From contig NZ_CRPU01000008.1 in the NCBI RefSeq assembly GCF_001096185.1, positions 1 to 64,000 on the forward strand: a stretch of 64,000 nt of DNA, read 5' to 3'. The notes beneath the pieces were generated by a model, which was not told the DNA's origin, made no database searches, and was given only the letters and a program-made list of their open reading frames with translations. This stretch comes from Streptococcus pneumoniae. GTDB taxonomy: Bacteria; Bacillota; Bacilli; Lactobacillales; Streptococcaceae. Numbering within the stretch: position 1 is the stretch's first letter; every line of letters starts with the position of its first letter. Made by a program: the position numbers and the translations under genes. Positions 19,601 through 63,794 of the stretch are shown here, one piece after another.

Positions 19601-21142
19601 CACAACTTGACACAGGCGGAGCAAGATACAGTAGCAGCTAAGGTTAAAGAAGCAAATCCAGCGGCGACAGATGTTAAGGTATCTAAAGATGGAACAGCAA
19701 CGCTAACATATGGAGATGGTTCAGTAAACACAATCCCAGGAACCAGTCTAGTAGTAGCCAAAGATACTGACAATGAAGCTTCAACACAAGCCGCGCAAAA
19801 TCCAGCTGTGGTGCCAGCAACTACAGAAGTTGGAAATGCTCATAACTTAACACCTGAGGAACAAGCCGCAGTAACAGCTAAAGTACAAGCAGCCAACCCA
19901 GCGGCGACAGATGTTAAGGTATCTAAAGACGGAACAGCGACATTGACATACTCAGATGGTTCAGTCAATACAATTCCGGGAACCAGTCTAGTAGTTCAAA
20001 AAGAGGAAACTCCAACACCAGAGCAACCAACAATCGCAGAGAAGACAAAAGTAATCATCCCAGCTAACCCTACAAAAGTAGCAGAAGCTACAAGATTGAC
20101 AGATGAAGAAAAAGAAGCTGTTAAAAAAGCTGTAGTAGATGCAAATGGATTCGGAAGCGATGTTAAAGTTGAAGTAGCTGGAGATGGCACAGCGACAATC
20201 GTCTTTAAAGATGGTTCAGCTATTACAATTCCAGGAAATCAATTGGTAGCACAAGATCCAAAAGCACAAGATAGCACTAAACCGACTGCTGAAAAATCAA
20301 CTGTTAAAGCGCCTGCTCAAAGAGTAGATGTAAAAGATATAACTCATTTAACAGATGAAGAAAAAGAAAAAGTTAAGGTTGCTATTTTACAAGCAAATGG
20401 TTCAGCATTAGACGGAGCGACAATCAATGTAGCTGGAGATGGTACAGCAACAATCACATTCCCAGATGGTTCAGTAGTGACGATTCTAGGAAAAGATACA
20501 GTTCAACAATCTGCGAAAGGTGAATCTGTAACTCAAGAAGCTACACCAGAGTATAAGCCAGAAACTACACCAGGTGGAGATAATGGAGGCAATACTGGAA
20601 GCTCAGATGCTAATGTGAATGCAGGCGGTGGTAGCCAGGCAGGCGGACAAGCTAACACAGGTTCACAAACCCCAGCTCAATCACAAGCTTCTAAGCAATT
20701 AGCTACTGAAAAAGAATCAGCTAAAAAGGTCATTGAAAAAGCTGCCAAGGACAAGCAGCATGAAATCAAAGGCGCACCGCTTTCTGATAAAGAAAAAGCA
20801 GAACTTTTAGCAAGAGTGGAAGCAGAAAAACAAGCAGCACTCAAAGAGATTGAAAACGCGAAAACTGTGGAAGATGTGAAGGAAGCAGAAATGATTGGAG
20901 TGCAAGCCATTGCCATGGTTACAGTTCCTAAGAGACCAGTGGCTCCTAATGCTGCTCCTCAGGCAACAAGTGCACCGCAAGCAACTGCAGGAACAATGCA
21001 AGATGTTACCTACCAGTCACCTGCTGGCAAACAACTACCTAACACAGGTTCAGCATCAAGTGCAGCACTTGCTAGTCTTGGTCTAGTGGCGGCAACCAGT
21101 GGTTTTGCTTTGCTAGGAAGAAAGGCTAGACGTAGAAAATAG
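13622..21142 (+). CDS. Giant LPXTG-anchored, multi-domain cell-wall surface protein
   Basis: The 2506-residue protein starts with a YSIRK-type signal (FSIRKFSFGAAS, residues 20-31; cleavage near Ala50) and ends with a sorting signal: LPNTG at 2472-2476, a hydrophobic segment and a KARRRK tail. Sortase A should link it to peptidoglycan. Read in order: an N-terminal domain (about 51-310, possibly ligand-binding); a beta repeat with DGTATITY (about 318-400); several three-helix modules resembling GA domains (about 513-800, such as IDGLTHLNNAQKTELKEQV); two FIVAR-like modules (about 803-950); a beta domain; DUF1542-like Lys/Glu/Ala helices (several copies, about 1108-1806 and 2357-2435); six DGT..TY.DGS beta repeats (about 1808-2297); and a Gly/Ser/Asn linker. 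GA and FIVAR modules suggest binding of host proteins such as albumin, but the ligand is unproved. GGAG at 13610 fixes the start. Pneumococcus has, as I recall, only a short anchored protein at this place. Confidence 0.93.
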   Translation: MKYKRTQKRSKQMWQRVEKFSIRKFSFGAASCLIGASLVGAAGTVQPVEAALKYEKTGDKTARTLYTNLGDSPNEATGSGVRDVVDVDKEIQINVDWSQYSKTNPYVKVTYKFNGGYGASAIYHYGGGRPEFWFTTPIGVKEPRKITLYNGGTGDQGRVMTSWKGSQGWISLSNSVGSRYQNAEAAKALNAGDPTKWEWYNDTTGESGKTYRGDLDAMFWWRMGDTIAGKPGDQAIYELFKNNTKSFYADWERAAHQSITIEAEYEVVDPTLKNERYTLDFGAGVKVGHAGSFRSRFKVSTEQVPALYKNTEFFEPKIPERLGVGNTTNLTQKEKDKLKEKIWEANKDNTSNSLPEVQNKFVDNLKDGKEGIQIGNDGTATITYKDNSTDVIPGTSLVYEDPNAAETIAAEKSGYKYNKNPYPVDDMSKIKDDELEKALENFYAINGMKLNGSTIASVGEGVSDKFIGKFISPYTRPGADYGKGFIAGDTSQPRPYIPKEDLFKQKVVLDNTAIASAREKGKKAIEDLTFLSPKEKEVFKKELEGKTSQEDINSVVNKAISRNSANEKGIAEKKLEVKKGIDALTYLTNAEKEELRKKVDDQGIADPENADDSEGKALDHTKSLLDKILTDATATNLAKAKEKAKEQIEKIKDSLTPEKVEEFKNKIESADSVSKIEEILKEAETLKAKNEADKAKAEADKLKEDYKKKIDQIPGLSDEDKANYKKQIDEATSKDQLDRILKDAEEKVSREQARTDAKDIIDGLTHLNNAQKTELKEQVAAAGGKEELDRIVNAARDLDSKMDSLQQLVTKADEVKKTEQYTNATVETKTPFDTALTNADEVANKETGKDASSSEVDGLIDKLKEAIKNLTGKEVVVPVSKDALRAEVAKADEVHKSPAYLKDTQDKQQDYDKALNDAKTPLEDDKASQEDVDAALEKLQKARTALSGKVEDFTLAVTDGAAKISVEPKVGAELSETDKGTVKAKVTANGEALKDTDTVMYGNITEKDGKTYVKVTVTRDGVSKEIEVPVEGTEAAKSPLKDPEKVKVNDVNNLSEAETTAVKEAVKKANTNLTDNQISVDNTGKVTVTYSDKSKNELPASKTVEAKTEAEKALDKAKEKAKADLTKAVDEEKAEIEADKTLTEDQKKAEKEKVDEAKKTAESNIDKAGTTDEVTTATEEGKKAIDAVHKTNAEQATPTVTGGAVEISVDPNTATNVDSEADKTAIKDAVTVPEGQPQPAKKEILNSGAIKDGKTPGTKVVEVEVTYEDGSKEIIEVPVVKKDQVFTVGVKDPAKPIEIPNTPTVGEDLKDEDKEKIKENLLVNGESLKEGDKVEFGKVTQEQDKTVVSVTVTRDGKSETINVEVVKKSNTTGGKGDSNSTPTNKTELEKAKEKAKSDLAQAAAKEKEEIDADEKLSEDEKAQAKAKVDEAKKAAEANIDKATTPEEVAKATEDGKKAIDAVHQITPEQAKKDLTEAADKEKGEIGGDTTLTDKEKEALKAKVDEVKKAAEDKINNAKTPEEIAKATEEGKKAIADVYNPQTAKGQSTSVFKPELDLQTALVSGKVTVEKGKGLTDEEILKQLALADGLTAKVISKPTTTEAGTKEAEVEVTLANGTKVTVKVPVEVVASLDTADKDNDLAKAKEDAKKQVEEAAKKKLEEIKNNKDLTEDQKQKAEEAINKAKEDANKAIDQASSAGTAKQIADQAKENIEKYDPKADTEVKKPDVTNLDEEKAKAKAEILEEAQKRINEIKNNKDLSDEAKQKAIEEINKAKDKAIEDINKGQSKDEINAAKEAGIHKINEVQPDGSIASKFEPKVPENKVEVGNPAKLSDEEREQVRQNIEGANTFPDGTTVEVKPHGTAVITYKDGSSDTISKDKLVAPANKETGTIASRTEPVIPGKTQVGNTTKLTPAEQATVKKAVEEANNFPAGTTVEVRPDGTVVITYPDKSVDTITGDKLVEKGSKQETPKVQTDAEKNPAQVPGNFVPVENTHNLTQAEQDTVAAKVKEANPAATDVKVSKDGTATLTYGDGSVNTIPGTSLVVAKDTDNEASTQAAQNPAVVPATTEVGNAHNLTPEEQAAVTAKVQAANPAATDVKVSKDGTATLTYSDGSVNTIPGTSLVVQKEETPTPEQPTIAEKTKVIIPANPTKVAEATRLTDEEKEAVKKAVVDANGFGSDVKVEVAGDGTATIVFKDGSAITIPGNQLVAQDPKAQDSTKPTAEKSTVKAPAQRVDVKDITHLTDEEKEKVKVAILQANGSALDGATINVAGDGTATITFPDGSVVTILGKDTVQQSAKGESVTQEATPEYKPETTPGGDNGGNTGSSDANVNAGGGSQAGGQANTGSQTPAQSQASKQLATEKESAKKVIEKAAKDKQHEIKGAPLSDKEKAELLARVEAEKQAALKEIENAKTVEDVKEAEMIGVQAIAMVTVPKRPVAPNAAPQATSAPQATAGTMQDVTYQSPAGKQLPNTGSASSAALASLGLVAATSGFALLGRKARRRK
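19655..19945 (+). repeat. Near-identical 240-bp-spaced repeat inside the surface protein gene
   Basis: The stretch beginning GCGGCGACAGATGTTAAGGT and running into the DGTATLTY codons occurs near 19660 and again 240 bp later with only scattered silent changes. It encodes consecutive beta repeats three and four. Such DNA identity can support unequal recombination and length change. Confidence 0.75.
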
Positions 21143-22954: not shown

Positions 22955-23854
22955 ATGTTAATTGGTCAAAAAATTAAAGAGATTCGGATAGAAAAAGGAA
23001 TTAGTCGTCCAGATTTTTGTGGAGATGAGCAAGAACTGACAGTTCGTCAACTGTTGCGAATTGAAAGTGGAGCTTCGCAACCGAGTTTGCCCAAGTTAGA
23101 CTATATTGCTCGCCGGCTAGGAGTTCCAGCTTATAGCCTTATGCCGGATTTTTCAGCTCTTCCTCCTGCTTATTTAGAATTGAAATACCAGATTTTACGT
23201 GAACCAATCTATGGTAAAGAAGAGGAGTACGATAAGAAGGAAGCGTGTTTGGAAGAGATTTATAAAACATACTTTGATAATCTTCCTAAAGAGGAACAAT
23301 TAGCATGTGAAGTATTGCAGGCGTGTTTGGATACTTCTAGAACTAGAAGGCATGAATATGCAGAGTTAATACTTGAGGAACATATGCCTCAGATCATAGA
23401 AAAAGAAGTTTATTCAACAAATGATATGTTGTTGATTCGTTTGTTTTTTTATCAAATGCTCATTAGAAACGATCTTGCCAAATTTGTGAATCAAATCGAA
23501 AAGATAATGTTCCTTCTTTTGGAACAGAAGAAGATAACTCAAATAGAGAATTACTTTATAATTAGAGATACTCTTATTTCAGGAATGTGTTGTCTTGAAA
23601 AGGTAGGAGTAACTGATTGTTTTAATGATTATCTATCGTGTTTACAAGAAATGATGGATAAAACTCAAGATTATCAAAAGAAACCTCTTGTATTTATGTT
23701 TTTGTGGAAGCAAGCATTAAGAGTAGAAAGAGATTTTAGTTTAGCTGAATCATTTTATCAGTCTTCTAAAACATTTGCGCAGCTAATTGGAGATGGATTT
23801 CTAGTAAAGAAATTGACAGAGGAATGGCAAGAGGATGTAAAAAAATATTTATAA
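22955..23854 (+). CDS. PlcR/Rgg-like transcriptional regulator (RRNPP type)
   Basis: This 299-residue protein has an N-terminal XRE helix-turn-helix (GQKIKEIRIEKGISRPDFCG, then ELTVRQLLRIESG) and a long helical C-terminal region like the TPR-type peptide-sensing part of the PlcR family. GAGGAGG upstream fixes ATG 22955. It precedes a lactococcin-972-type exporter operon, and a palindromic operator sits at that operon's promoter, so it is probably the local regulator. I found no pheromone gene on either strand next to it; it may sense a signal made elsewhere. Composition is AT-richer than the flanking rnmV and ksgA, which suggests accessory origin. Confidence 0.82.
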   Translation: MLIGQKIKEIRIEKGISRPDFCGDEQELTVRQLLRIESGASQPSLPKLDYIARRLGVPAYSLMPDFSALPPAYLELKYQILREPIYGKEEEYDKKEACLEEIYKTYFDNLPKEEQLACEVLQACLDTSRTRRHEYAELILEEHMPQIIEKEVYSTNDMLLIRLFFYQMLIRNDLAKFVNQIEKIMFLLLEQKKITQIENYFIIRDTLISGMCCLEKVGVTDCFNDYLSCLQEMMDKTQDYQKKPLVFMFLWKQALRVERDFSLAESFYQSSKTFAQLIGDGFLVKKLTEEWQEDVKKYL

Positions 23855-23895
23855 ATATCGTGAAGCAATGACAAAAATGTCCTTGTCCTCGTATC

Positions 23896-23933
23896 AAAAC
23901 AGTTCTAAAGTTCGTCTTTAGAGCTGTTTTTTT
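23896..23933 (+). terminator. Terminator of the PlcR-like regulator gene
   Basis: A 15-bp stem AAAACAGTTCTAAAG (23896-23910) with CTTTAGAGCTGTTTT (23916-23930), one wobble, followed by TTT. Confidence 0.88.
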
Positions 23934-23971
23934 AGATATAAGCTAAAAATAATATGAAATAGTTAGATTTT

Positions 23972-24016
23972 AAGGACATTGGTGTCCTTGATAGTTCTTG
24001 AAAAAACGGATATAAT
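23972..24016 (+). promoter_or_regulatory. Promoter with palindromic operator for the exporter operon
   Basis: AAGGACA-TTGG-TGTCCTT (23972-23989) is a perfect 7-bp-arm palindrome. Its end overlaps the -35 box TTGATA (23988-23993), which is 17 bp from TATAAT (24011-24016). A single half-site TGTCCTT also occurs at 23879-23885. The arrangement fits repression by the regulator encoded just upstream. Confidence 0.75.
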
Positions 24017-24069
24017 ATATTTGAAGATGTTGCTAGTAGAAAGAACTTAATAAACTTCTTAACATTGCA

Positions 24070-24100
24070 GTGACTGTGGTCACCTTCTCACTAAGTGACC
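24070..24100 (+). promoter_or_regulatory. Two mutually exclusive hairpins in the exporter leader
   Basis: GTGAC (24070-24074) can pair with GTCAC (24079-24083); alternatively GGTCAC (24078-24083) can pair with GTGACC (24095-24100). Both use the same middle segment. The ribosome site of the exporter gene follows at 24113, so switching could affect translation; this is inference. Confidence 0.35.
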
Positions 24101-24122
24101 AAGTAACTTTTTGGAGGAAATG

Positions 24123-26153
24123 ATGAAACGTTTATTTATTTTGATTTCAATGGTATTGGTATCGCTTTATATGGTGATAAATTCCGTTGATCATCGAGAA
24201 GAGATTTTATTTGGTAACTATCCCTCTGTTGATGTGATGGGTACTGTGCTAGACCAATCAGTAGCTGATCGAGAAAAACTGACAGAGGCTTTGAGTCACT
24301 TGGGGGTAGAGCACAATAGTCTCATTGCTCGTCGAATCGTTGAGCCAAATGAAGCTGGAGAAACACGCTTTACCTATGCCACTTATGGCCAGGGAGAGCT
24401 TCCAGAAGGTTTGACCATTTCCTCCAAGGAGAGTACAGAAACGAGTGATTTATTAGGGTCTTACTTGATTGTATCAGGAAGTTTGGATGGAGTGAGCTTA
24501 CAGACCGCCCTGCAAGAACTTGGTTATAATGGTATTGTCTCGAATAGAACAGAGGCATTTTCGATGGTCGTCCTCTTGGCTGCTACTCCAATGGGGCTAC
24601 TGAGTCTAGCTATTTTTCTGCTGACCTTTATGAGTCTGACCCTGATTTATCGGATCAAGTCTCTTCGTCAGGCAGGAATTCGCTTAATCGCTGGTGAGAG
24701 CTTGTTTGGGGTGGCTCTTAGACCAGTGTTAGAAGATGTGAGACAGCTTATCTGCTCAGTGCTGGTATCCAGTCTTTTGGGATTGGGGATTCTCTGGTAT
24801 CAAGGTGCCTTGTTTATGGCAACGGTGCAACTGGTCATCATTGCTCTTCTACTTTATGGATTGACCTTGGCAGGGATTTCTACCTTACTAAGTGTCGTCT
24901 ATCTACTTGGTTTACAAGAAAATAGTCTGGTGGATCTATTGAAAGGGAAACTCCCTCTCAAACGTATGATGACATTGATGATGGTGGGGCAACTCTTAGC
25001 CGTGCTGGTGGTCGGATCGAGTGCGACAGCTCTCCTACCCCACTACCGTGAAATGCAGGAGATGGAGAGAGCTAGCGATAAATGGAGTCAGTCCTCAGAC
25101 CGTTACCGTCTATCCTTTGGTTGGTCTAGTGCATTTGCCGATGAAGAAGGAATGCGTAAGGATAATCGTGAGTGGCAGACATTTACTGAAGAACGGTTAG
25201 CCAATACAGACTCTTTTTATATTATGAGCAATGTTGACAATTTCTCAGATGGAGCAGAAGTGGACCTAGATGGCAATCGTCTCAATGACTACACACCGTC
25301 AGGAAATGTCATCTATGTCTCACCGCGCTATCTGATAGAAGAAAAGATTACCGTTTCTTCAGAGTTTATGGACAAGATGCAAAACTTGTCTGAGGGAGAG
25401 TTTGGGCTGATCTTACCTGAGAGTTTGCGAGAGCAGTCTGCCTACTATCAAAGATTATTTACAGATTACCTGCAAAGATTTTCGTCTGAAAGTGTAGAGG
25501 CGACGAGTCAGAAACACTACCTCCCACAGTTAAGGCTAGATTTTACAGAAACAGGACAGGAACGCTTCCTCTATAACGATGGGTACAAGACGACACGCCA
25601 GTACCTAAAAGATCCGATTATTGTAGTTTTAACGCCACAAGCGACTGGAATAAGACCTGTTGCAGGAATGTTATGGGGAACTACGGCTAATAGTGCCTTG
25701 AAACTAGATCGATATGGAGACAGCATCACAGCTCTAAAAGAGCAAGGTCTGTATCACAAGGTTTCTTACTTGGTAAAAAGCCAGCTATTTTTTGCCAAGG
25801 TACTAAATGACAAACGGGTGGAGTTTTACTCTCTCCTTATTGGGACGATTTTGACCCTGACTACGGCTATCTTGTTATTTGATTCCATGAGTCTTCTCTA
25901 TTTTGAGCAGTTCAGACGGGAGCTTATGATTAAACGTCTTGCTGGTATGACAATCTATGAGCTTCATGGCAAGTATTTACTGGCGCAAGGAGGAGTTCTC
26001 TTGCTTGGCCTAGTCCTATCTAGTATTTTGACAAGAGATGGTTTGATTAGCGCTCTAGTTGTAGCTTTGTTTACGCTTAACGCCCTCTTGATTTTAGTAA
26101 GGCAGGATAAAAAGGAAGAAGCTGGTAGCATGGCAGTATTGAAAGGAAAATAA
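24123..26153 (+). CDS. Bacteriocin-associated integral membrane protein (lactococcin-972 type, DUF1430-like)
   Basis: The 676-residue protein has an N-terminal membrane segment (about 2-20), an outside region, a cluster of four membrane segments (about 145-300), a second large outside domain (about 300-550) and three C-terminal segments (about 570-665). The same layout and many shared motifs (such as SGNVIYVSPRYL and DPIIVVLTPQ) occur in the paralogue at 56026. Proteins of this family accompany lactococcin-972-like bacteriocins as putative immunity or export permeases. ATG 24123 is 5 nt from GGAGG. No bacteriocin precursor was found next to this copy. Confidence 0.85.
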   Translation: MKRLFILISMVLVSLYMVINSVDHREEILFGNYPSVDVMGTVLDQSVADREKLTEALSHLGVEHNSLIARRIVEPNEAGETRFTYATYGQGELPEGLTISSKESTETSDLLGSYLIVSGSLDGVSLQTALQELGYNGIVSNRTEAFSMVVLLAATPMGLLSLAIFLLTFMSLTLIYRIKSLRQAGIRLIAGESLFGVALRPVLEDVRQLICSVLVSSLLGLGILWYQGALFMATVQLVIIALLLYGLTLAGISTLLSVVYLLGLQENSLVDLLKGKLPLKRMMTLMMVGQLLAVLVVGSSATALLPHYREMQEMERASDKWSQSSDRYRLSFGWSSAFADEEGMRKDNREWQTFTEERLANTDSFYIMSNVDNFSDGAEVDLDGNRLNDYTPSGNVIYVSPRYLIEEKITVSSEFMDKMQNLSEGEFGLILPESLREQSAYYQRLFTDYLQRFSSESVEATSQKHYLPQLRLDFTETGQERFLYNDGYKTTRQYLKDPIIVVLTPQATGIRPVAGMLWGTTANSALKLDRYGDSITALKEQGLYHKVSYLVKSQLFFAKVLNDKRVEFYSLLIGTILTLTTAILLFDSMSLLYFEQFRRELMIKRLAGMTIYELHGKYLLAQGGVLLLGLVLSSILTRDGLISALVVALFTLNALLILVRQDKKEEAGSMAVLKGK

Positions 26154-26154
26154 G

Positions 26155-26796
26155 ATGATTGATATTCAAGGATTGGAAAAGAAATTTAATGACCGCGCGA
26201 TTTTCTCTGGTTTAAACCTCAAGCTGGAGAAGGGCAAGGTCTATGCCTTAATCGGGAAGAGTGGGAGCGGAAAGACGACGCTGCTGAATATCTTAGGCAA
26301 ACTAGAAAAGATAGATGGAGGAAGGGTTCTCTATCAGGGGAAAGATTTAAAAACCATTCCCACTCGTGAGTATTTTCGAGACCAGATGGGCTATCTCTTT
26401 CAAAATTTTGGCCTTTTAGAAAACCAATCAATCAAAGAGAATTTGAATTTGGGCTTTGTTGGTCAAAAGATTTCAAAAATAGAACGTTTGGAAAGGCAAG
26501 TGGAGGCTTTAGAAAAAGTTAATCTAGGGTATTTGGATTTAGAACAAAAAATTTATACTTTATCTGGGGGAGAGGCTCAACGAGTTGCCCTTGCGAAGAC
26601 TATTTTGAAAAATCCACCCTTGATTTTGGCAGATGAACCAACAGCCGCTCTTGATCCTGAAAATTCAGAGGAGGTTATGAATCTCTTGGTGGGCTTGAAA
26701 GATGAAAATCGAATGATCATCATTGCGACCCATAATCCCCTAGTCTGGAATAAGGCCGATGAAATCATTGATATGAGGGAGCTTGCTCATGTGTGA
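26155..26796 (+). CDS. ABC transporter ATP-binding protein of the lactococcin-972 immunity/export type
   Basis: This 213-residue ATPase has Walker A GKSGSGKT (about 34-41), a Q-loop in YLFQNFGLLENQS, signature LSGGE near 136, Walker B LILADEP and switch His in ATHNPLVW. It starts 2 nt after the permease stop. It closely resembles the ATPase at 55392, which shares the YLFQNFGL and LSGGE.QRVALAK motifs. Together with the permease it should form an ABC transporter of the MacB-like architecture. Confidence 0.9.
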   Translation: MIDIQGLEKKFNDRAIFSGLNLKLEKGKVYALIGKSGSGKTTLLNILGKLEKIDGGRVLYQGKDLKTIPTREYFRDQMGYLFQNFGLLENQSIKENLNLGFVGQKISKIERLERQVEALEKVNLGYLDLEQKIYTLSGGEAQRVALAKTILKNPPLILADEPTAALDPENSEEVMNLLVGLKDENRMIIIATHNPLVWNKADEIIDMRELAHV

Positions 26797-54954: not shown

Positions 54955-54979
54955 TTCTTTTGTCCTGTTCTTGTTTCAA

Positions 54980-55306
54980 TTGACTATATTTCTATACTTT
55001 TTCTTCCTTTCTCTGTGAAAATCGCAAATTTATCCCACCTTTTCTCAATACTGAAACAACATCTTTCCAGAACTTTAATAATTTCTTTTTGTATTAAATC
55101 ATTATTTAACTAAATCTTTGGAGGCAATACGTTTTCAAAGCTACTTTTTTACCATAGGTTTTGAGCCTTCAACACAGATTACTAAGCCAAAAATGCTCTA
55201 AATTTTTGAAATTCTAACAAATTCCACTCAACTTTATCATCATCTTTGACTTTCACAATATCTTCCTCAAAATAACATGGAATAAAGATAGTTTTCTTTC
55301 GAAACG
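54980..55306 (+). repeat. 327-bp direct repeat, copy A
   Basis: It starts TTGACTATATTTCTATAC and ends TTTCGAAACG. By eye it differs from copy B (58675-59001) at about 8 positions with no indel. On minus it contains two decayed coding tails, one ending KFRAFLA-stop and one ending GRKSIEI-stop, so it looks like pieces of former genes. Confidence 0.92.
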
Positions 55307-55391: not shown

Positions 55392-56024
55392 TTATTTCAG
55401 ACTATCCATCGTGAACACTTCATCAGCCATCTCCCAAATTGCCGGATTATGTGTTGCGATAATGATTAGCCTATTATCATCTCGAAGAGATAGCAAAATC
55501 TCCATAATCAACTGAGAGGTTGCTGGGTCTATTGAAGCTGTTGGCTCATCTGCCAGAATAAGGGGTGGATTCTTTAAGATAACTTTTGCCAAGGCAACCC
55601 GTTGCGATTCTCCGCCCGATAACTCAAAGATGCGCTTATCTAGGTCAAGATAAGCCAGGCCGACCTGTTCTAAAGCCTGCTTCTGCCTCAACCGCTGTTC
55701 CGACCGACTCAACTTTTGACCAATGAGACCTAGCTTAAGGTTTTCTTCAATACTTTGGTTTTCAATTAAGCCAAAGTTCTGGAAGAGGTAGCCCAATTCG
55801 TGACGGAAAAAATCACTCGATTTATAATTGGCCAAGTCTTTACCTCGGTAAAAAATCGTCCCATCATAAGATTCTAATTTTCCAATCATGTTCATCAAGG
55901 TTGTTTTTCCGCTACCACTTGAACCAATTAAGGCATAGACTTTTCCAGCCTCAAATGTCATTGAAAGATTCGAAAATAACTCTCGTTCTCCAAAAGATTT
56001 ACTCACCTGTTTAAGTTCAATCAT
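55392..56024 (-). CDS. Bacteriocin cassette 1: ABC ATPase (lactococcin-972 type)
   Basis: The 210-residue ATPase has Walker A GSSGSGKT (about 34-41), YLFQNFGLIENQS with the Q-loop, signature LSGGESQRVALAK, Walker B LILADEP and switch His in ATHNPAIW. It starts 1 nt after the stop of the permease gene. It is a close relative of the ATPase at 26155. With the permease it should form the export or immunity transporter for the lactococcin-972-like peptide at 58144. Confidence 0.9.
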   Translation of the reverse strand: MIELKQVSKSFGERELFSNLSMTFEAGKVYALIGSSGSGKTTLMNMIGKLESYDGTIFYRGKDLANYKSSDFFRHELGYLFQNFGLIENQSIEENLKLGLIGQKLSRSEQRLRQKQALEQVGLAYLDLDKRIFELSGGESQRVALAKVILKNPPLILADEPTASIDPATSQLIMEILLSLRDDNRLIIIATHNPAIWEMADEVFTMDSLK

Positions 56025-56025
56025 A

Positions 56026-58041
56026 TTAACCTCCCTTCAAAACAAGCATGGACATCTTGTTTTCTTTCTGCATTTGGACATGTAACTGTAAAAGAGATAG
56101 ACCAGTAAAGAGTAACAAGACTAAGAAAGCAACTACTATCTCTACCATAAGAAATACACTCGCAACAAATCCCAGTAAAAACACACCCAGTTGAGCAAAG
56201 AGATAAGTGCGATGGATTTCTAAGAACCTGAGACCTGCAATGCGTTTGATAAAAATGGCACGTCTAAATTCTTCAAAGTAGAGCCTATTCATAGTGTTAA
56301 ACAACAAGATTGAAGTTGCAATCCCAAGCACAGCTCCTGCTAGCATTACCCAACGTTCCCTCTGGATATTATCCAATAATGTGATGTAGTTGTGGTAACC
56401 TGTTTGCATTTCTGAGACCCAATTTTCAATGCCTTGTCTCTGGATAAGCTCCTGGGCATCAGACAATTGATTAAAGAGAATGTAGTTCTGTACTGCGTCT
56501 ATCCAAAACAAAATGGACTGTGGACCAGTTGATTGGGGTGTTATAACAATGATGATTGGATCTTTCAAAAATTGTTGGTAAGAAATAGGGGTCGTATTAT
56601 ACACAAAACGATCCTGACCTGATTCTAAATAACCTACCGTAGCAGTCATTTGCTGTCGTTCATCTTGACTAGACATGCGACTGGTTAAGTCGTCTTCAAA
56701 AACAGATTTATAATGTTCTTCCTCTGAACGGAGGTGTTCAGGCAGCAATAAGACAAACTCCCCTACATCAAGGTGATTCATCTTTTGCTCAATAGTTGTA
56801 TCTACAGGAATGTTTTGACGCTCCAAGTATTGCGGTGTGACGATAAGGACATTGCCATTCGGGCTGTAATCGTACCATTCTGTAGAGGTTATAAAGTTTT
56901 TGGAGGAAGCCATGCCATTTTGCAAAGTACGGTCAATTAACTGGTGTCTAGATAAGAAAGCCTTTTGTTCTGAAACAGCCAGATCCATCAATTGATACCA
57001 AGTTCTGAGTTTCCTTTGAGCTTGTTCATCAAAACCAGGACTCGTTCCTTCACGGCTGATTGATAGGGTAATCAGTTGCCTTTCCTGGCTCCAAGCCTCT
57101 TGTCCAATCCGATGCTGTTGCCAGGCTTGGGAATACTTTAAGCTACTCCCTATTCCCAGCGTTACAATAATAATCGCTAATAGTTGACCGATTAAAATCA
57201 AACTAATGATTCCTCTGACAGGCACTTGCCCTTTTATAATCTGCATCAGGTGTATCTTTTTTATCCCAACTGCGAAGAGTTGAGCGAAAAACAGGGAGAT
57301 AGACAACAAGATGAGATTATAACTGAGCAAGCCTGCTCCTATGGTCATTAGGGATTGCGTTGGAAGCGACAGAATTTTTTGCATAAGAATGGTGAGCACG
57401 CCAGCTAAACTGAAACCAACAGCTATCCCTTTCAAATCCTCACCAACTGGTCTAAGAAAAATGGACCACCGTTTCTCTCCTGAAATGAGGCGAATGCCCG
57501 ACGACCGTAATTGGCTAATTTGACTAATTAAAGTCAGTGCTCCAAAGGTTAAGATGAAAATCAATAAACTGATTAACTGAAATCCGTTACTAAAGATAGC
57601 CATTAACGTAGATAGTTTAGATGGAATTGTCAGGTGCATATTAGTCAAGCCAAGTTGACTTAGCTCCTCCCTTAGCAAGTGAATATCTAGGTGTCCATCG
57701 AATACAAAATAGTTTGTTTCAACACTACTACTTTGAGCATCTTCTAGTTTTTTTTCCTGAAGCCCATCAGGCAACTTTCCGTCCCCAAAGGTCGTATAAG
57801 AAAAAACTGTAGTACCTTCTGAGTTAGGATCTTGGTGTTGAATCGCAATAAAGCTATCTGTTTCTTCTGCTAGTTTTTCCAAGCGTGTAGCAACATGCTG
57901 AAAAGTTGTTTCAGGGGAAGAATCACGTACAACAACGTTGGGGTAATAATAGGAGACATATGTATCAGTCCAAATGGTAAATACCCAAACAAAGAACAAA
58001 CTAGCAAGCAGGTTGGATATGAGTATAAATAATTTTTTCAT
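56026..58041 (-). CDS. Bacteriocin cassette 1: integral membrane protein (DUF1430-like)
   Basis: The 671-residue protein repeats the family layout: one N-terminal membrane segment (about 2-22), an external region, a four-helix cluster (about 150-300), a second external domain (about 300-560) and three C-terminal helices. It shares motifs such as SGIRLISGE, PNGNVLIVTPQYL and DPIIIVITPQSTG with the copy at 24123. Such proteins are described as bacteriocin-associated immunity or transport proteins of lactococcin-972 loci. Confidence 0.87.
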   Translation of the reverse strand: MKKLFILISNLLASLFFVWVFTIWTDTYVSYYYPNVVVRDSSPETTFQHVATRLEKLAEETDSFIAIQHQDPNSEGTTVFSYTTFGDGKLPDGLQEKKLEDAQSSSVETNYFVFDGHLDIHLLREELSQLGLTNMHLTIPSKLSTLMAIFSNGFQLISLLIFILTFGALTLISQISQLRSSGIRLISGEKRWSIFLRPVGEDLKGIAVGFSLAGVLTILMQKILSLPTQSLMTIGAGLLSYNLILLSISLFFAQLFAVGIKKIHLMQIIKGQVPVRGIISLILIGQLLAIIIVTLGIGSSLKYSQAWQQHRIGQEAWSQERQLITLSISREGTSPGFDEQAQRKLRTWYQLMDLAVSEQKAFLSRHQLIDRTLQNGMASSKNFITSTEWYDYSPNGNVLIVTPQYLERQNIPVDTTIEQKMNHLDVGEFVLLLPEHLRSEEEHYKSVFEDDLTSRMSSQDERQQMTATVGYLESGQDRFVYNTTPISYQQFLKDPIIIVITPQSTGPQSILFWIDAVQNYILFNQLSDAQELIQRQGIENWVSEMQTGYHNYITLLDNIQRERWVMLAGAVLGIATSILLFNTMNRLYFEEFRRAIFIKRIAGLRFLEIHRTYLFAQLGVFLLGFVASVFLMVEIVVAFLVLLLFTGLSLLQLHVQMQKENKMSMLVLKGG

Positions 58042-58440: not shown

Positions 58441-59056
58441 ATTATTACTCCTCTGAATGAAATATTATGAAAATGAGCGAAATGTAACTATATATTTTAA
58501 TTAGAAATCTCAGTCTGAATTATAGTATCCTATTTTTTCCTCCTTTCTAACTGCACGTTCCTTTCTACAGGCAGAGACCTAATTTTATAAACCAATCTTA
58601 AATACTTTAGATTTTGTAACTCATCATTTTCAACAGTTGGCTAGCTATGAAAGCATTTTATCAAACATCTCCATTTGACTATATTTCTATACTTTTTCTT
58701 CCTTTCTCTGTGAAAATCGCAAGTTTTTCCCACTTTTTCTCAATACTGAAACAACATCTTTCCAGAACTTCAATAATTTCTTTTTGTGTTAAATCATTAT
58801 TTAACTAAATCTTTGGAGGCAATACATTTTCAAAGCTACTTTTTTACCATAGGTTTTGAGCCTTCAACACAGATTACTAAGCCAAAAATGCTCTAAATTT
58901 TTGAAATTCTAACAAATTCCACTCAACTTCATCATCATCTTTGACTTTCACAATATCTTCCTCAAAATAACATGGAATAAAGATAGTTTTCTTTTGAAAC
59001 GGGTTCAGAAGTAACCGTATCAAGTGCTAATAATGCTTGAGTTAATTTACAAGAAC
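58441..59056. other. Intergenic region between the two bacteriocin cassettes
   Basis: The first 230 bp contain the upstream region of cassette 1 with a minus-strand TATAAT (58524-58519) but no good -35. Copy B of the 327-bp repeat follows (58675-59001), then the short tail of cassette 2. No gene is seen. Confidence 0.7.
58675..59001 (+). repeat. 327-bp direct repeat, copy B
   Basis: Same length, direction and sequence as copy A apart from about 8 substitutions. It separates cassette 1 from cassette 2, so cassette 1 lies exactly between the two copies. Confidence 0.92.
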
Positions 59057-59698
59057 CTACTCCAGTGAAATGATCCTATCACATTGCCGTGCTTGCTCCA
59101 TGTTATGCGTAACAACCAAAATTGTTTTACCAAATTGATCTCTCAAAGTTCGAATCAAATCGAATGCTTTTTGAGACATTTCAGGATCTAACGATCCGGT
59201 TGGTTCATCTGCTAGGACAATATCTCCGGGCTTTAAAATAGCTCTCACAATCGCAATTCTCTGCTGTTCACCTCCCGATAATTCATTGATTTTACTATTT
59301 AACCGATTTTGTAGACCAACAAATTCTAGCGTTTCCTTGATTCTCTGCTCTTTCTCCTGTCTAGAGAAATTCGAAAAAGTCATGGCAAGCATCAGGTTAT
59401 CTTTCACACTAGATGTAGAAATGAGTGCATTGGATTGAAAAAGATAGTTGATGACATTCCTTCGATAATGAACTGCTGATTGCGAATTTACCTTAGGCAA
59501 AACTTTTCCGTTGATTAGGATTTTACCACTGTCAACAGTATCCAATAGTCCAATCATATTGAGGATAGTCGATTTTCCAGAACCAGAAGGTCCTACTAAA
59601 GCTACAAATTCATTTTCCTCAATATCAAAGCTTAAGTCTTTGAAAATTTCTCTTGAACCAAATTGTTTTGATACATTTTGTACTGAAATTCTAGACAT
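59057..59698 (-). CDS. Bacteriocin cassette 2: ABC ATPase
   Basis: The 213-residue ATPase has Walker A GPSGSGKST, a Q-loop in YLFQSNALIS, signature LSGGEQQRIAIVRAIL, Walker B IVLADEP and switch His in VTHNMEQA. It follows the permease gene after 4 nt. It is clearly more distant from the ATPases at 26155 and 55392 than those are from each other. It should power the cassette 2 transporter. Confidence 0.9.
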   Translation of the reverse strand: MSRISVQNVSKQFGSREIFKDLSFDIEENEFVALVGPSGSGKSTILNMIGLLDTVDSGKILINGKVLPKVNSQSAVHYRRNVINYLFQSNALISTSSVKDNLMLAMTFSNFSRQEKEQRIKETLEFVGLQNRLNSKINELSGGEQQRIAIVRAILKPGDIVLADEPTGSLDPEMSQKAFDLIRTLRDQFGKTILVVTHNMEQARQCDRIISLE

Positions 59699-59702
59699 GA
59701 GA

Positions 59703-61904
59703 TTACTCCTTAAATGATTGTATGATACTCTCTCCTTCTTTACGGAACAAACTGAAGTAAAGAAGCATTATCTGAAAAGCAAATGTAGCTAGTGTCATGA
59801 CTATTCCCAACTTAGAACCCACCAAGATAGAAACGATTAGTTCCATCACAGAAAAACTAATAATGAGAGAAACCACACCAATATATCTTTTCCATGGTGA
59901 GAATCCCATAAAGTATTGAACATACAATTTTTCTTCAAATAACAAGCGGTACATTAAGACAAAACTCCAGAAAATAGCCATCATCGTAATGATGATAATC
60001 GCTATAATCGTGCCGAAAAGATAAAATGTATAACTCAGATCTTTTTGAAGACCATTGATAAAGTTCTTGACAGTTGTAAAACTCAACCGATTATCCGTTA
60101 AATCTGGAAATTCTGTTTCTAAAACGGACACTACCTGTTCCATTGTTTCCCTATCACGAATCTTCAAAAGACCATTATAGCCGTTGACAACTAAGTTTGC
60201 CGACTCCATGAAATATAGATTCTCTGGTGTTGAGACAAAAATAACTGGATTCTCACTAGTTGTACCATAAGAAATGGAATCTGACCAAGTAAATATTGGT
60301 CGAGACGGTTGGTAAACCTTGAACATAAATTTCGGATTTTCTGTGAAATTAGTTTGTAAATCTCCCGGTTTTACAGTGACACTTTCCTGTAAATAAGCCT
60401 TCATCGCCTCAAGTTCTTCTGTATTGAGCGTGTTAGGTAGAAGATAAAGTCGAGTACCATTCCTCATCTCTAGCAACTCCTCATCACTTAGGGGAATACC
60501 TAACTCTTGCAGGTAATTATAGGAGAATTTCAAATACCAAAATGGTTTTTTAGGGACATGTTGGTATGTCCCATAGACTGCATCAAGGTACTCCTGATTA
60601 AGAAATTTTCCTTGGGCAATATAGACACCTGGAAGCTCAGATATACGCTGGTAAAAGCTATACATACTACGCTCAAGGGAATTTGTAGTTCCTGCATATG
60701 TACCTACATCATCTCCCTCAACAAAGCTGGAGATAACGTACATATCTTCAACATTTTTCCACTCCCTAGATACTTTCATATTATCAATAAACTGATTCGT
60801 TGGAGCATCTAAAGAGTAACTGACTGCGATTAACAAACCAGCTACCAAGGTATAGAATAACAAGCAGGTTACCATTAAAGGCTTCATTGGTAATCGTTTA
60901 TGAATTGCGGCTAATGGAGAAACCGAATAAACAATAATCGTTGGAATAATGAATATCAATAGTAGCAACAAGACTGAGAGGCTGACTCCAGCAAAAACTA
61001 GAATAAACGATGATAAACCAAAACTAGACCAGCCTGACAACAACCAACTACATAAAGAGATAATTGGAATAATGTAGATTGAAAATAGTAGAGAATTTTT
61101 GAAAAAAGCAGACCATAATTCTTTTCTATCCCATCCTAAAAGAATCAATGTTCCGAAATGTTTAAAGGATTGAAGAACACAGATTAAGAATAGAATCAGT
61201 AAAATGAAGGCATTTACTAAGATGCTGATAGCAAGTATTATTCCCCAAATTCCCTGATCAGTACTACTTCCAAAACTTTCTTTTGTCAAATCCTCAACAG
61301 AAATACCTGACATCTTTGAAAGATGCAACAGAAAGTTATCTCTTGAGACAGCATCGTGGAGACCATTGATATGGTATATCCCATTGATCGTATTAGTGTT
61401 TTGAAAAGTATAATCTAATCGTTCAATGACTACAGGTGTGCTAAATAATAAATCTGGAAGCTCGTAAAGCATATTATTTGAGCCTTTGTCAAGTCCAATA
61501 GTCATACTATTATCACTATGAGATAATAAATCTGCAAATTGTTGTTGTGAGACTACTATTTTACCCGTACTTTCAAAATCTGAAAAACCAGCAGAGCTGC
61601 CAAGGATGTCTATATAAATCCTATTTAGACCTTCTCCTGTATCACTACTTTCAGAACGTTTTGTCCATATGGACAAGTCACTCTGTTCTAAAAAATAATT
61701 AAATACATCTTGTGATTGCTCTTCTGTTAACTTCTGAAGATAAACTGTTACGGTCCCGGAATGATGATTATAACTCTTCCATGACTGTTGATACTGTAAA
61801 CCTGTTAAAAAAATTGCCACCAGAGCAAGTAAGACACTCTGGATGGCAATCAAAAACAGGATTAAGTATCTCATTTTACCTAATAATATGTTTTTGTATG
61901 TCAT
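59703..61904 (-). CDS. Bacteriocin cassette 2: large integral membrane protein
   Basis: The 733-residue protein has an N-terminal membrane segment (about 10-32), an external domain, a cluster of membrane segments (about 220-365), a second external domain and three C-terminal segments (about 615-720). This is the architecture of the cassette 1 permease but with low sequence similarity. Its ATG overlaps the stop of the bacteriocin gene (TTATGA), giving translational coupling. It probably exports or gives immunity to the cassette 2 peptide. Confidence 0.85.
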   Translation of the reverse strand: MTYKNILLGKMRYLILFLIAIQSVLLALVAIFLTGLQYQQSWKSYNHHSGTVTVYLQKLTEEQSQDVFNYFLEQSDLSIWTKRSESSDTGEGLNRIYIDILGSSAGFSDFESTGKIVVSQQQFADLLSHSDNSMTIGLDKGSNNMLYELPDLLFSTPVVIERLDYTFQNTNTINGIYHINGLHDAVSRDNFLLHLSKMSGISVEDLTKESFGSSTDQGIWGIILAISILVNAFILLILFLICVLQSFKHFGTLILLGWDRKELWSAFFKNSLLFSIYIIPIISLCSWLLSGWSSFGLSSFILVFAGVSLSVLLLLLIFIIPTIIVYSVSPLAAIHKRLPMKPLMVTCLLFYTLVAGLLIAVSYSLDAPTNQFIDNMKVSREWKNVEDMYVISSFVEGDDVGTYAGTTNSLERSMYSFYQRISELPGVYIAQGKFLNQEYLDAVYGTYQHVPKKPFWYLKFSYNYLQELGIPLSDEELLEMRNGTRLYLLPNTLNTEELEAMKAYLQESVTVKPGDLQTNFTENPKFMFKVYQPSRPIFTWSDSISYGTTSENPVIFVSTPENLYFMESANLVVNGYNGLLKIRDRETMEQVVSVLETEFPDLTDNRLSFTTVKNFINGLQKDLSYTFYLFGTIIAIIIITMMAIFWSFVLMYRLLFEEKLYVQYFMGFSPWKRYIGVVSLIISFSVMELIVSILVGSKLGIVMTLATFAFQIMLLYFSLFRKEGESIIQSFKE

Positions 61905-62203
61905 AAGTACTTACCTACAATTCCAGTAACATTCAGCTGTACAGTTCCAATGAATTTAGAAACATGTGCTTCTACTCCAGGTGATTGCCAGCCTGAGAAT
62001 GCCCCGTTAGCAGTTGCTGAGTGTTCGTAAACACCAGACTGAACATTTGAATAGCTCCAAAGACCAGCAGTACGACCATAATTCCAATAAACTGCAGTAC
62101 TTTTATACCAAACTGTTGCAGCTGAAACAATCGAACCACCTGCACCAGCTAAAGTCAGTGTAAGTAAAGATGTTGTAATTATTTTTTTTATGCTTTTCTT
62201 CAT
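61901..62203 (-). CDS. Bacteriocin cassette 2: divergent lactococcin-972-like precursor
   Basis: The 100-residue secreted precursor has a basic start (MKKSIKKIITTS), a hydrophobic core and cleavage near IVSAAT (about residue 29). The mature part has the family pattern VYWNYG, LWSYSNVQSGVYEHSAT and GWQSPGVEAHV, but lacks the classical C-terminal W motif and ends in GIVGKYL. AGGGC upstream is a weak ribosome site. It leads its operon and is coupled to the permease gene. Confidence 0.82.
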   Translation of the reverse strand: MKKSIKKIITTSLLTLTLAGAGGSIVSAATVWYKSTAVYWNYGRTAGLWSYSNVQSGVYEHSATANGAFSGWQSPGVEAHVSKFIGTVQLNVTGIVGKYL

Positions 62204-62367
62204 TGTAAAGCCCTCACTTCTTTCACTTAAAATCTAACAATAACAATGACTGCCTTTAGAAGTATCAACAAATCAAACCCTAGAACATTCGAATCACTTC
62301 TTTCTAATTAAAAGTTAGATAAAACAGAAATACTATATAGTTAATAGTATTTTCATCATTTAATCAA

Positions 62368-62541
62368 CTAATCAGCCTTCCCAACATCAGGACCATTGGA
62401 CTTCTTTTGTGATTGCACTTGAATCTCCAATTGTTTATTCTTCTGAATAACTGTTGGTAAGGAATTGTGTTACTAAACGTAAAAACACCTAGTAATGCTA
62501 ATATAGCTAATTTTTGAATTCCACGTTTTTTTCTTATACAA
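62368..62541 (-). pseudogene. phrA: Frameshifted PhrA-type pheromone precursor gene
   Basis: On minus, AAAGGGG is followed after 5 nt by TTG at 62541; TAG at 62370-62368 lies in the same frame, 58 codons later. In between the coherent protein runs through two frames: a basic start and hydrophobic segment (KKRGIQKLAILALLGVFTF) in one frame, and a C-terminal part ending QSQKKSNGPDVGKAD in the frame of the start and stop. A one-base insertion in the A7 run (62526-62532) and a one-base loss near 62450 would explain this. The last ten residues match the pneumococcal PhrA signal SNGLDVGKAD, which I recall from the TprA/PhrA literature, except Leu to Pro. As read, no intact precursor can be made. 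Confidence 0.82.
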
Positions 62542-62592
62542 TGAAACCCCTTTCTGTTTCCTTGTTTTTATTCTAACATATATATTTTATTT

Positions 62593-62680
62593 GTTCAAAT
62601 GTTTTTATTATATTTTGAACTTTTTTTAAAAATTATTGCCAAAAAGAATTTTTTTATTCCTTTAACTTGCTATTTTGAAC
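62593..62680. promoter_or_regulatory. Repeated TATTTTGAAC elements, putative TprA operators
   Basis: TATTTTGAAC occurs at 62611-62620 and, identically, at 62671-62680. An inverted copy GTTCAAA at 62593-62599 faces TTTGAAC at 62614-62620. The second copy overlaps the tprA -35 region, and the first group covers a minus-strand TATAAT (62612-62607) that could serve phrA. Confidence 0.6.
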
Positions 62681-62695
62681 TAAAAATTTTATAAT
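62667..62695 (+). promoter_or_regulatory. tprA promoter
   Basis: TTGCTA (62667-62672), a 17-bp spacer and TATAAT (62690-62695), with a TATTTTGAAC element at the -35/spacer junction. Confidence 0.7.
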
Positions 62696-62729
62696 GAAAT
62701 TAAGCAAATAGGAAGGTTTATTATCTTTA

Positions 62730-63593
62730 ATGAATACACTCGCAGAGAAATTCAGAGTAAAGAGAAAAGAGTTAGGTCTCTCCCAACAAACTCTTGCAGA
62801 AGGAATTTGTGAACAAAGCCAGATTAGTAAAATTGAGAGAGGGCATTTCATTCCCTCCGCAGACCTTTTGTTCAAACTCTCACAACGACTTGAAGTACCA
62901 TTAGATTACTTTTTCAATGAACAAATTGAAATTAAATCTAACCTCTCTAATTTCAAGCAATTGTCTGCTCGACTATTAGATGACAGAAATTATGATAATT
63001 TGGAATATATTTATAGAATTGAGATTGAACGAAGTACTTTTCTAACACTAGAAGACCGAACTTACCTTGAATGGATTAAAGCTATTATTGACTTCTATCA
63101 ATATGACAGTAAGTGTGAGGCTATTTCTTCATTGGAAAATATATTATTAAAAGTCTCTTCAAATACTCTGATTTATTTAAAGGCGTTGAATACTCTATCT
63201 AATTTCTATTCCTTAGTGGGTCGTGAACAAGAATATGAGGCAAACTACTCTCATTTGATGGAGTTATATCAGACAAAAAATTTTGAGCATCAAGAGTTTT
63301 TATTTGGCTACATCAGAGTTCGTTACAACTACGCTCACTACCTAGTATCAAAGGAAAAATATAATGAAGCCATCCAAGAAGCTCTTGAGACGATTGAACT
63401 CTGTAAACAAAGACAGACAAGCTATCAACTGGCTCCTCTACTTATTCTTGTAGGAAATGCTGGAGCCAAATTTCTAGACAAAGAACAAGTCAAAAATTAT
63501 TATATAGAAGCAAAAGAGTTATGCAAGATTTATAACAATCCTTTAATGTTGATGAAGATAGAAAATTATTTGAAGGAATTAGATACTGTTTAG
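62730..63593 (+). CDS. tprA: TprA-like peptide-sensing transcriptional regulator (RRNPP/PlcR family)
   Basis: The 287-residue protein has an N-terminal XRE helix-turn-helix (AEKFRVKRKELGLSQQTLAE, then QSQISKIERG) and a C-terminal array of TPR-like helices (such as ALNTLSNFYSLVGREQEYEA and NYAHYLVSKEKYNEAIQEAL) that binds pheromone in this family. Length, sequence feel and the adjacent divergent phr gene identify it as TprA of the pneumococcal TprA/PhrA system, where TprA represses until PhrA is re-imported by the oligopeptide transporter. Its local PhrA gene is broken here. The target genes are unknown; the adjacent bacteriocin cassette is the obvious candidate. Confidence 0.88.
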   Translation: MNTLAEKFRVKRKELGLSQQTLAEGICEQSQISKIERGHFIPSADLLFKLSQRLEVPLDYFFNEQIEIKSNLSNFKQLSARLLDDRNYDNLEYIYRIEIERSTFLTLEDRTYLEWIKAIIDFYQYDSKCEAISSLENILLKVSSNTLIYLKALNTLSNFYSLVGREQEYEANYSHLMELYQTKNFEHQEFLFGYIRVRYNYAHYLVSKEKYNEAIQEALETIELCKQRQTSYQLAPLLILVGNAGAKFLDKEQVKNYYIEAKELCKIYNNPLMLMKIENYLKELDTV

Positions 63594-63636
63594 TTAATCT
63601 TGACATTATAGTTTTTCTGAAACGTTAAATAACCTG

Positions 63637-63675
63637 TAAGGCTGATAGTGAAATGAATACTATCAGCCTTATTTC
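63637..63675 (+). terminator. tprA terminator
   Basis: A 13-bp perfect stem TAAGGCTGATAGT (63637-63649) with ACTATCAGCCTTA (63659-63671); the T tail is short. Confidence 0.78.
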
Positions 63676-63681
63676 AAATTT

Positions 63682-63794
63682 ATATTCTTCCAAAATCTCT
63701 TCAAACCACGTTAGTTCTATCTCCAACCTCAAAACAGTGTTTTGAGCAACCTGTGACTAGCTTCCTAGTTTACTCTTTGATTTTTACTGAGTAT
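63682..63794 (+). repeat. BOX element after tprA, plus orientation
   Basis: boxA (CAAAATCTCTTCAAACCACG) is followed by a single boxB core (CCTCAAAACAGTGTTTTGAG) and boxC (TAGTTTACTCTTTGATTTTT) ending at GAGTAT. Confidence 0.88.

What the first reader, a model, noticed from the sequence alone, without database searches (positions are those of the whole stretch)
62368..62541. Broken PhrA pheromone gene next to an intact TprA receptor
The minus strand encodes a Phr-type precursor ending SNGPDVGKAD, one residue from the pneumococcal PhrA decapeptide as I recall it (SNGLDVGKAD). The start (TTG 62541) and stop (62368) share one frame, but the signal-peptide half is read only in another frame. This implies an extra A in the A7 run (62526-62532) and a lost base near 62450. 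The receptor gene looks intact. The cell may thus be signal-blind, constitutively repressed, or an eavesdropper on PhrA made by neighbours. The Leu-to-Pro change in the signal core is an added sign of decay or of a new signal type.
Basis: partly seen in the sequence, partly recalled or inferred. Interest (0 to 1): 0.85.

Follow-up and report, generated by a model that had tools for sequence, protein, structure and literature searches.

The report
Listen-only PhrA/TprA signalling locus
This Streptococcus has lost the gene for a peptide used to call its neighbours but kept the receptor that hears the call; several relatives show the same state through different mutations, so listening without calling may be common among these bacteria.

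Summary
The core observation holds. Window 62537-62368 (- strand) is a dead phrA-type pheromone gene (95% identical to an intact relative over 167 nt) beside an intact tprA (62730-63593, 287 aa). The break near 62450 is real and shared with two other genomes, so it is not a sequencing error. Intact copies end in LDVGKAD, mostly SNGLDVGKAD.

The larger result is a pattern. Of 46 close TprA loci (>=95% identity, 42 genomes), 44 could be classified: 20 have an intact phr, 21 are clearly broken in at least ten different ways, 3 are ambiguous. The receptor is full-length and open in 18 of the 21. A pattern search found no other PhrA-like C-terminus in this genome. Downstream lie two lactococcin-972-type bacteriocin cassettes, complete here. 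In relatives, 29 cassettes with intact immunity-position and ABC genes keep an intact bacteriocin gene in only 12.

Best reading: TprA stays as a repressor that only neighbours' PhrA can lift (a listener). Plain decay is the main rival. The Pro form as a new signal is not supported.

The parts
62368..62537 (-). phr (phrA-type pheromone precursor) pseudogene; start codon lost and one frame break in the middle third; C-terminus SNGPDVGKAD
62730..63593 (+). tprA, PlcR-type receptor/repressor, 287 aa, intact
62538..62729 (.). divergent intergenic region; promoter-like sites at 62598-62570 (-) and 62667-62695 (+); aligned with those of relatives
   Evidence: the promoter scan found 5 sites against 4.2 expected in shuffles, so it is not evidence by itself
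62368..62430 (-). 20-codon TTG frame without signal peptide that still ends SNGPDVGKAD (mechanical ORF only)
61901..62203 (-). lactococcin-972-like bacteriocin peptide, 100 aa (weak match, below the curated cut-off)
   Evidence: TIGR01653, 20.1 bits, cut-off 32.1; no Pfam match
59703..61904 (-). 733-aa membrane protein in the immunity position of the first cassette
   Evidence: position; no family match
59057..59698 (-). ABC ATPase of the first cassette, 213 aa
   Evidence: TIGR03608, 246.4 bits, just under its cut-off 254.85; PF00005
58144..58440 (-). lactococcin-972 bacteriocin peptide of the second cassette, 98 aa
   Evidence: PF09683, 34.5 bits over cut-off 22; TIGR01653 30.8, just under 32.1
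56026..58041 (-). bacteriocin-associated integral membrane protein (presumed immunity), 671 aa
   Evidence: TIGR01654, 233.9 bits over cut-off 189.35
55392..56024 (-). ABC ATPase of the second cassette, 210 aa
   Evidence: TIGR03608, 261.9 bits over cut-off 254.85

Best explanation
The locus is a TprA/PhrA quorum-sensing unit turned listen-only. phr is a pseudogene, so the cell cannot make PhrA from it. TprA is intact and presumably still represses the divergent phr promoter and the lactococcin-972-type cassettes behind it. The locus would open only when mature PhrA (LDVGKAD) made by neighbouring streptococci is imported and binds TprA. Shown here: the dead gene, the intact receptor, no other PhrA-like C-terminus found in the genome, the complete cassettes, and repeated loss of phr with the receptor kept in relatives. 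Inferred: repression of these cassettes by TprA, response to foreign PhrA, and any benefit from listening.
For: Dead phr with a lesion shared by two other genomes. TprA open and little changed. The D-x-G-x-A-D-stop pattern occurs once in the genome, in the remnant, and an intact Phr as query finds only the remnant apart from one chance-level match, E 0.25. Of 44 classifiable close loci, 21 clearly broken, 3 ambiguous, 20 intact; receptor full-length and open in 18 of the 21. TprA dN/dS 0.100 among 21 loci with phr broken or ambiguous, 0.077 among 19 with phr intact. A supply of the signal exists among relatives: 44 of 284 genomes carry a GL/FDVGKAD-stop site, broken copies included. Seven peptide-binding proteins of PF00496 in this genome make import plausible. 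In print: TprA represses and PhrA lifts it, and PhrA2 of one lineage acts on TprA of another strain (PMC5436883, passages and sections 13-14; PMC7595303, passages). A parallel with experiments: the orphan ComR of the pneumococcal scb locus responds to the S. pseudopneumoniae peptide (PMC11796350, sections 5 and 13).
Against: No expression or binding data for this TprA or these cassettes. TprA control of lactococcin-972 cassettes is predicted from location only (PMC11796350). dN/dS in the broken set is slightly higher than in the intact set, the losses may be recent and loci recombine, so retention of TprA does not prove use. The phr label is only weakly clustered on the tprA tree (44-57 of 500 shuffles as low). 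In G247 both receptor copies are frame-shifted and in G029b the receptor lacks 17 residues, beside broken phr copies. Broken genes can have a backup: blpAB of pneumococcus (PMC4739728, passages); a backup of a different sequence type would have escaped.
Confidence: 0.57

Rival explanations
1. Plain decay: phr died, TprA is kept as a simple silencer of a costly bacteriocin locus or has not yet decayed, and foreign PhrA plays no part.
For: Same lesions and the same intact receptor; heptapeptide drift in broken copies; in five relatives the 3' end of phr is replaced by sequence leading into another secreted-protein gene; G247 and G029b show receptor decay too.
Against: TprA stays under clear constraint (dN/dS 0.10) and was seen decayed beside an intact phr in none of the 20 intact loci. 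Both bacteriocin cassettes in the window are complete.
Confidence: 0.32
2. Short-circuit: the 20-codon frame 62430-62368 is translated without a signal peptide and its product lifts TprA inside the cell, so the locus is always on.
For: The frame is open and ends in a near-PhrA C-terminus; several broken relatives keep 20- or 37-codon frames of the same kind.
Against: The heptapeptide here carries the Pro change and such frames drift; no evidence of translation or of processing to the heptapeptide.
Confidence: 0.05
3. New signal: the shifted frame gives a secreted peptide with a new C-terminus.
For: In G243 (L056) the start is present and the shifted frame is open for 61 codons.
Against: In the window the start codon is lost as well; the new C-terminus has no resemblance to PhrA; the alternative frame is open in intact genes too, so its openness means little.
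Confidence: 0.03
4. Sequencing or assembly error.
For: Draft genome of 24 contigs.
Against: The mid-gene break is shared with G243 and with G221, a single-contig genome; the A-run has the length seen in intact relatives. The start-codon change has been seen in one other genome (G259 = L049), on a different background.
Confidence: 0.02

Closest known systems
TprA/PhrA of Streptococcus pneumoniae (PhrA = sp_1947/spd_1746; PMC5436883, PMC7595303)
   Same: Receptor 98% identical to the copy of an S. pneumoniae 19F strain (L059); phr divergent from tprA; intact relatives end in LDVGKAD; bacteriocin genes behind phr; near rpoB-rpoC in the window (that the pneumococcal genes lie near rpoBC too is recalled).
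   Different: phr is dead here and its heptapeptide changed; the neighbouring cassettes are of lactococcin-972 type, not the lanthipeptide genes of D39.
TprA2/PhrA2 of the PMEN1 lineage (PMC5436883)
   Same: Same kind of system; PhrA2 lifts TprA repression in another strain, a published case of one strain's peptide opening another's TprA.
   Different: TprA2 is about 60% identical to TprA (paper, section 13); PhrA2 ends VDLGLAD; nothing of that type was found in this genome.
scb locus with orphan ComR homologue ScbR (streptococcin B, PMC11796350)
   Same: Receptor, promoter and immunity-position genes kept, own signal gene absent, response to the peptide of another species shown by experiment.
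   Different: ComRS type, activator rather than repressor; no signal remnant described in the sections read.
blpAB 'cheater' strains of pneumococcus (PMC4739728 and the work it discusses, passages only)
   Same: Repeated, varied lesions in one gene of a bacteriocin signalling locus while the rest persists.
   Different: The export gene, not the signal, is broken, and ComAB was shown to back it up.
Streptococcin E and partial streptococcin clusters (PMC6120550, PMC10438807)
   Same: Lactococcin-972-type cluster placed by TprA (location as stated in PMC11796350); partial clusters without the bacteriocin are frequent in pneumococcus.
   Different: Pneumococcus only; the state of phr is not reported in the passages and sections I saw.

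Membership tests
TprA/PhrA system | PlcR-type receptor with N-terminal HTH, closely related to pneumococcal TprA | tested here: met
   PF01381 51.6 bits over cut-off 23; 98% identity to the S. pneumoniae 19F copy. The C-terminal repeat region gave no Pfam match.
TprA/PhrA system | phr gene divergent from tprA | tested here: met
   position and strand
TprA/PhrA system | intact Phr precursor with signal peptide | tested here: not met
   start codon lost and frame broken
TprA/PhrA system | C-terminal heptapeptide LDVGKAD | tested here: not met
   remnant reads PDVGKAD; 20 of 20 intact close relatives have LDVGKAD
TprA/PhrA system | peptide binding lifts TprA repression of the adjacent genes | not testable with these tools
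   bench work needed
Lactococcin-972 bacteriocin cassette (second cassette, 58440-55392) | bacteriocin peptide, DUF1430-type membrane protein and L_ocin_972 ABC ATPase in a row | tested here: met
   PF09683 over cut-off; TIGR01654 and TIGR03608 over cut-off; TIGR01653 30.8 bits just under 32.1
Lactococcin-972 bacteriocin cassette (first cassette, 62203-59057) | the same three genes | tested here: inconclusive
   same layout, but TIGR01653 20.1 of 32.1 bits, no match for the 733-aa protein, TIGR03608 246.4 of 254.85
Orphan receptor / eavesdropper | receptor present, own signal absent from the genome | tested here: met
Orphan receptor / eavesdropper | responds to the signal of others | not testable with these tools
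   not measured

The most novel reading that the evidence does not exclude
In mitis-group streptococci the PhrA signal is a public good that is lost again and again while the receptor and the immunity genes are kept under selection, so that natural communities are a standing mixture of callers and listeners, with alleles of the signal gene traded by recombination at this bacteriocin hotspot.
Probability: 0.33. Interest if true: 0.72.

Novelty: new variant of a known kind. Interest (0 to 1): 0.52.

Why it matters
Signal cheating in quorum sensing has a large theoretical and laboratory literature (search listings), but natural cases with repeated loss of the signal and a conserved receptor would be valuable. 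This locus offers about twenty natural listener alleles, twenty caller alleles, a known peptide and a known receptor, so the caller/listener question becomes directly testable. I found no report of phrA pseudogenes in the searches; of these I saw listings, plus passages of some of the papers, and the library holds open-licence papers only.

Tried and rejected
Extra base in the A-run: rejected, the run is as long as in intact relatives. TTG 62541 as start: rejected, off the ancestral frame. Pro form as a new pherotype: not supported (fetched loci only). Second source of PhrA or PhrA2 in the genome: none found. Link between phr loss and bacteriocin loss: 6 of 10 loci with intact phr and 5 of 15 with phr broken or ambiguous have an intact bacteriocin gene, p 0.24, not significant. 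Phage origin: no match for 62300-63700 in 50,697 phage records. First impressions that many relatives lack phr were wrong, because loci of minus-strand matches are not turned; redone. A first heptapeptide test (4 of 15) had a wrong denominator and was replaced. A lesion listing by pairwise alignment was spoiled by end gaps and replaced. The repeated AGTTCAAAAT in the intergenic region was considered as a TprA operator; its second copy is not conserved, so no claim is made.

Full report
WHAT IS THERE. On the minus strand, divergent from an intact receptor gene (62730-63593), lies a stretch 95.2% identical over 167 nt to an intact phr gene of a relative (E 8.6e-72). The three frames show the signal-peptide half in one frame and the C-terminal half, ending SNGPDVGKAD, in another. 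An alignment of 25 copies places two lesions: the start codon is lost, and the frame breaks once in the middle third.

RECEPTOR. It carries an N-terminal HTH (PF01381) and is 98% identical to the copy of an S. pneumoniae 19F strain (L059). A group at 59-60% identity in four other genomes fits TprA2, reported as about 60% identical to TprA (PMC5436883, section 13). Within the 40 sequences (itself included) it differs from the consensus at four sites, each variant also present in others.

HOW COMMON IS IT. A search of 284 genomes of the genus gave 63 with a TprA match at E <= 1e-60. I took 57 loci of 80% identity or more into and left out more distant ones and two short end fragments (G107:C7, G276:C3). 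Of these, 46 loci (42 genomes) are at least 95% identical. Two could not be judged (G229 stops at a contig end; G080 has a run of N inside phr). Of the other 44, 20 have an intact phr from an ATG to the conserved end. Three are ambiguous: G144 changes only its last residue, G197b could start at an in-frame TTG, G237 at a GTG. 21 are clearly broken: start codon lost in 3 (the window, which also has a frame break; G259; G073), frame breaks in 8, some with stop codons too, 3' end replaced in 5, 5' end replaced in 2, 30 bases or fewer left in 3. That is at least ten distinct lesions. TprA is full-length and open in 18 of the 21; the exceptions are G029b, which lacks the first 17 residues, and both copies of G247, which are frame-shifted. 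It is open in all 20 intact and all 3 ambiguous loci.

CONTROLS. (a) The sample starts from TprA, so I searched in reverse. 52 of 284 genomes match Phr. 44 of 284 carry a GL/FDVGKAD-stop site, and two of the 44 (G147, at a contig start; G225, whose phr has a stop) lack a TprA match at E <= 1e-60. G130 is a counter-example, with a degraded, more distant receptor in pieces beside such a site. (b) Length: tprA is five times as long as phr, yet 21 loci with phr broken or ambiguous have an open receptor, while none of the 19 intact loci in that set has a broken one. Three loci with both genes damaged (G029b, G247a, G247b) and G158 were left out of that set. Loci are related, so the p-values are not to be taken at face value. 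(c) On a tprA tree of 43 rows (19 intact, 21 broken or ambiguous, 3 outgroup rows with intact phr) the label needs at least 12 changes, 5 forced by well-supported branches; it is only weakly clustered (44-57 of 500 shuffles as low). Recombination may inflate the count. (d) TprA dN/dS is 0.077 among 19 loci with intact phr, 0.100 among 21 with phr broken or ambiguous, 0.088 across: constrained in both, slightly less in the second. (e) The heptapeptide is changed in 4 of 16 broken or ambiguous copies that keep the 3' end (G144 left out because it is classed by this change; L054, outside the 46, included) and in 0 of 20 intact ones (p 0.031); 3 of 13 against 0 of 19 gives 0.058.

ANOTHER SOURCE OF SIGNAL IN THIS CELL? 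The D-x-G-x-A-D-stop pattern occurs once in the genome, in the remnant; an intact Phr as query finds the remnant and one chance-level match. One Tpr-like receptor at 39% identity lies elsewhere, with a 53-codon precursor-like frame next to it that ends GIDTGAYYSPS, not a PhrA type; a more distant full-length relative at 23% (E 1.3e-4) was not examined further. So the cell appears unable to make PhrA. Seven PF00496 peptide-binding proteins make import plausible; import of PhrA by AmiACDEF is stated in PMC7595303 (passages).

WHAT IT MAY CONTROL. Behind phr on the same strand lie two complete lactococcin-972-type cassettes (62203-59057 and 58440-55392). The second fits its families; the first only weakly, and its 733-aa protein matches no model. 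PMC11796350 (section 13) predicts from location that streptococcin E is under TprA/PhrA, and PMC6120550 (sections 15, 17) describes cluster switching beside TprA while the regulator stays. In 46 loci (45 of the 46 above, without G229, plus L054; flanks 1.3-8 kb; matches of 60% identity or more) I found 29 cassettes with an immunity-position gene. That gene and the ABC gene were intact in 29 of 29 (one ABC gene cut by the end of the stretch), the bacteriocin gene in 12. This count is conditioned on finding the immunity-position gene; G197b holds a damaged bacteriocin gene without one. The 'immunity' role is presumed: PMC11796350 notes that it has not been tested for this class. Bacteriocin and phr states are not significantly linked (p 0.24).

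MECHANISM. In print, TprA represses and PhrA lifts repression, and PhrA2 made by one lineage acts on TprA of another strain (PMC5436883, passages and sections 13-14; PMC7595303, passages). The most economical reading here is a listen-only locus: repressed by default, opened by neighbours' PhrA. Every step after the genes themselves is inference. A published parallel is the pneumococcal scb locus, where an orphan ComR opens the locus on a peptide from S. pseudopneumoniae (PMC11796350, sections 5, 13). A caution is blpAB, where a degenerate export gene proved to be backed up by ComAB (PMC4739728, passages); I looked for a backup here and found none.

VERDICT. Real and well spotted, with one lesion misplaced. 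A single broken pheromone gene is of modest interest; the repeated loss of the signal with retention of the receptor is the stronger finding. I file it as a new variant of a known kind.

Noticed in passing
22955-26796 (+): A regulator with weak HTH matches (299 aa), then a TIGR01654 membrane protein (296.5 bits over cut-off) and a TIGR03608 ABC ATPase (278.8 over cut-off), with no plus-strand frame over 23 codons between regulator and membrane protein. This looks like the bacteriocin-less scb layout of D39 described in PMC11796350; identity with scb is not tested.
   Followed up: partly
54977-55276 and 58672-58971: A 300-nt direct repeat, 97% identical, directly behind each lactococcin-972 cassette: a possible substrate for gain, loss or swapping of cassettes.
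   Followed up: no
L034, L038, L040, L069 (upstream of tprA): The 3' part of phr is gone and a gene for a roughly 306-327-aa secreted protein (starting MKLLKKTMQAGLTVIFFGLLATNTVFAD) follows the phr promoter and 5' remnant, so the promoter may now serve another gene.
   Followed up: partly
L039 and L163 (G080): phr codons 1-14 lie beside a run of N in one scaffold and codons 14-56 in another, in frame with a 362-codon open frame: insertion or scaffolding fault, not resolved.
   Followed up: no
G000:C1:344301-345140 (L167): A second Tpr-like receptor (39% identity) with a 53-codon precursor-like frame behind it in the same direction, ending GIDTGAYYSPS: a separate peptide system by layout.
   Followed up: partly
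13622-21142 (+): A 2506-aa repetitive protein with a YSIRK-like start and an LPNTG anchor near the end (read by eye).
   Followed up: no
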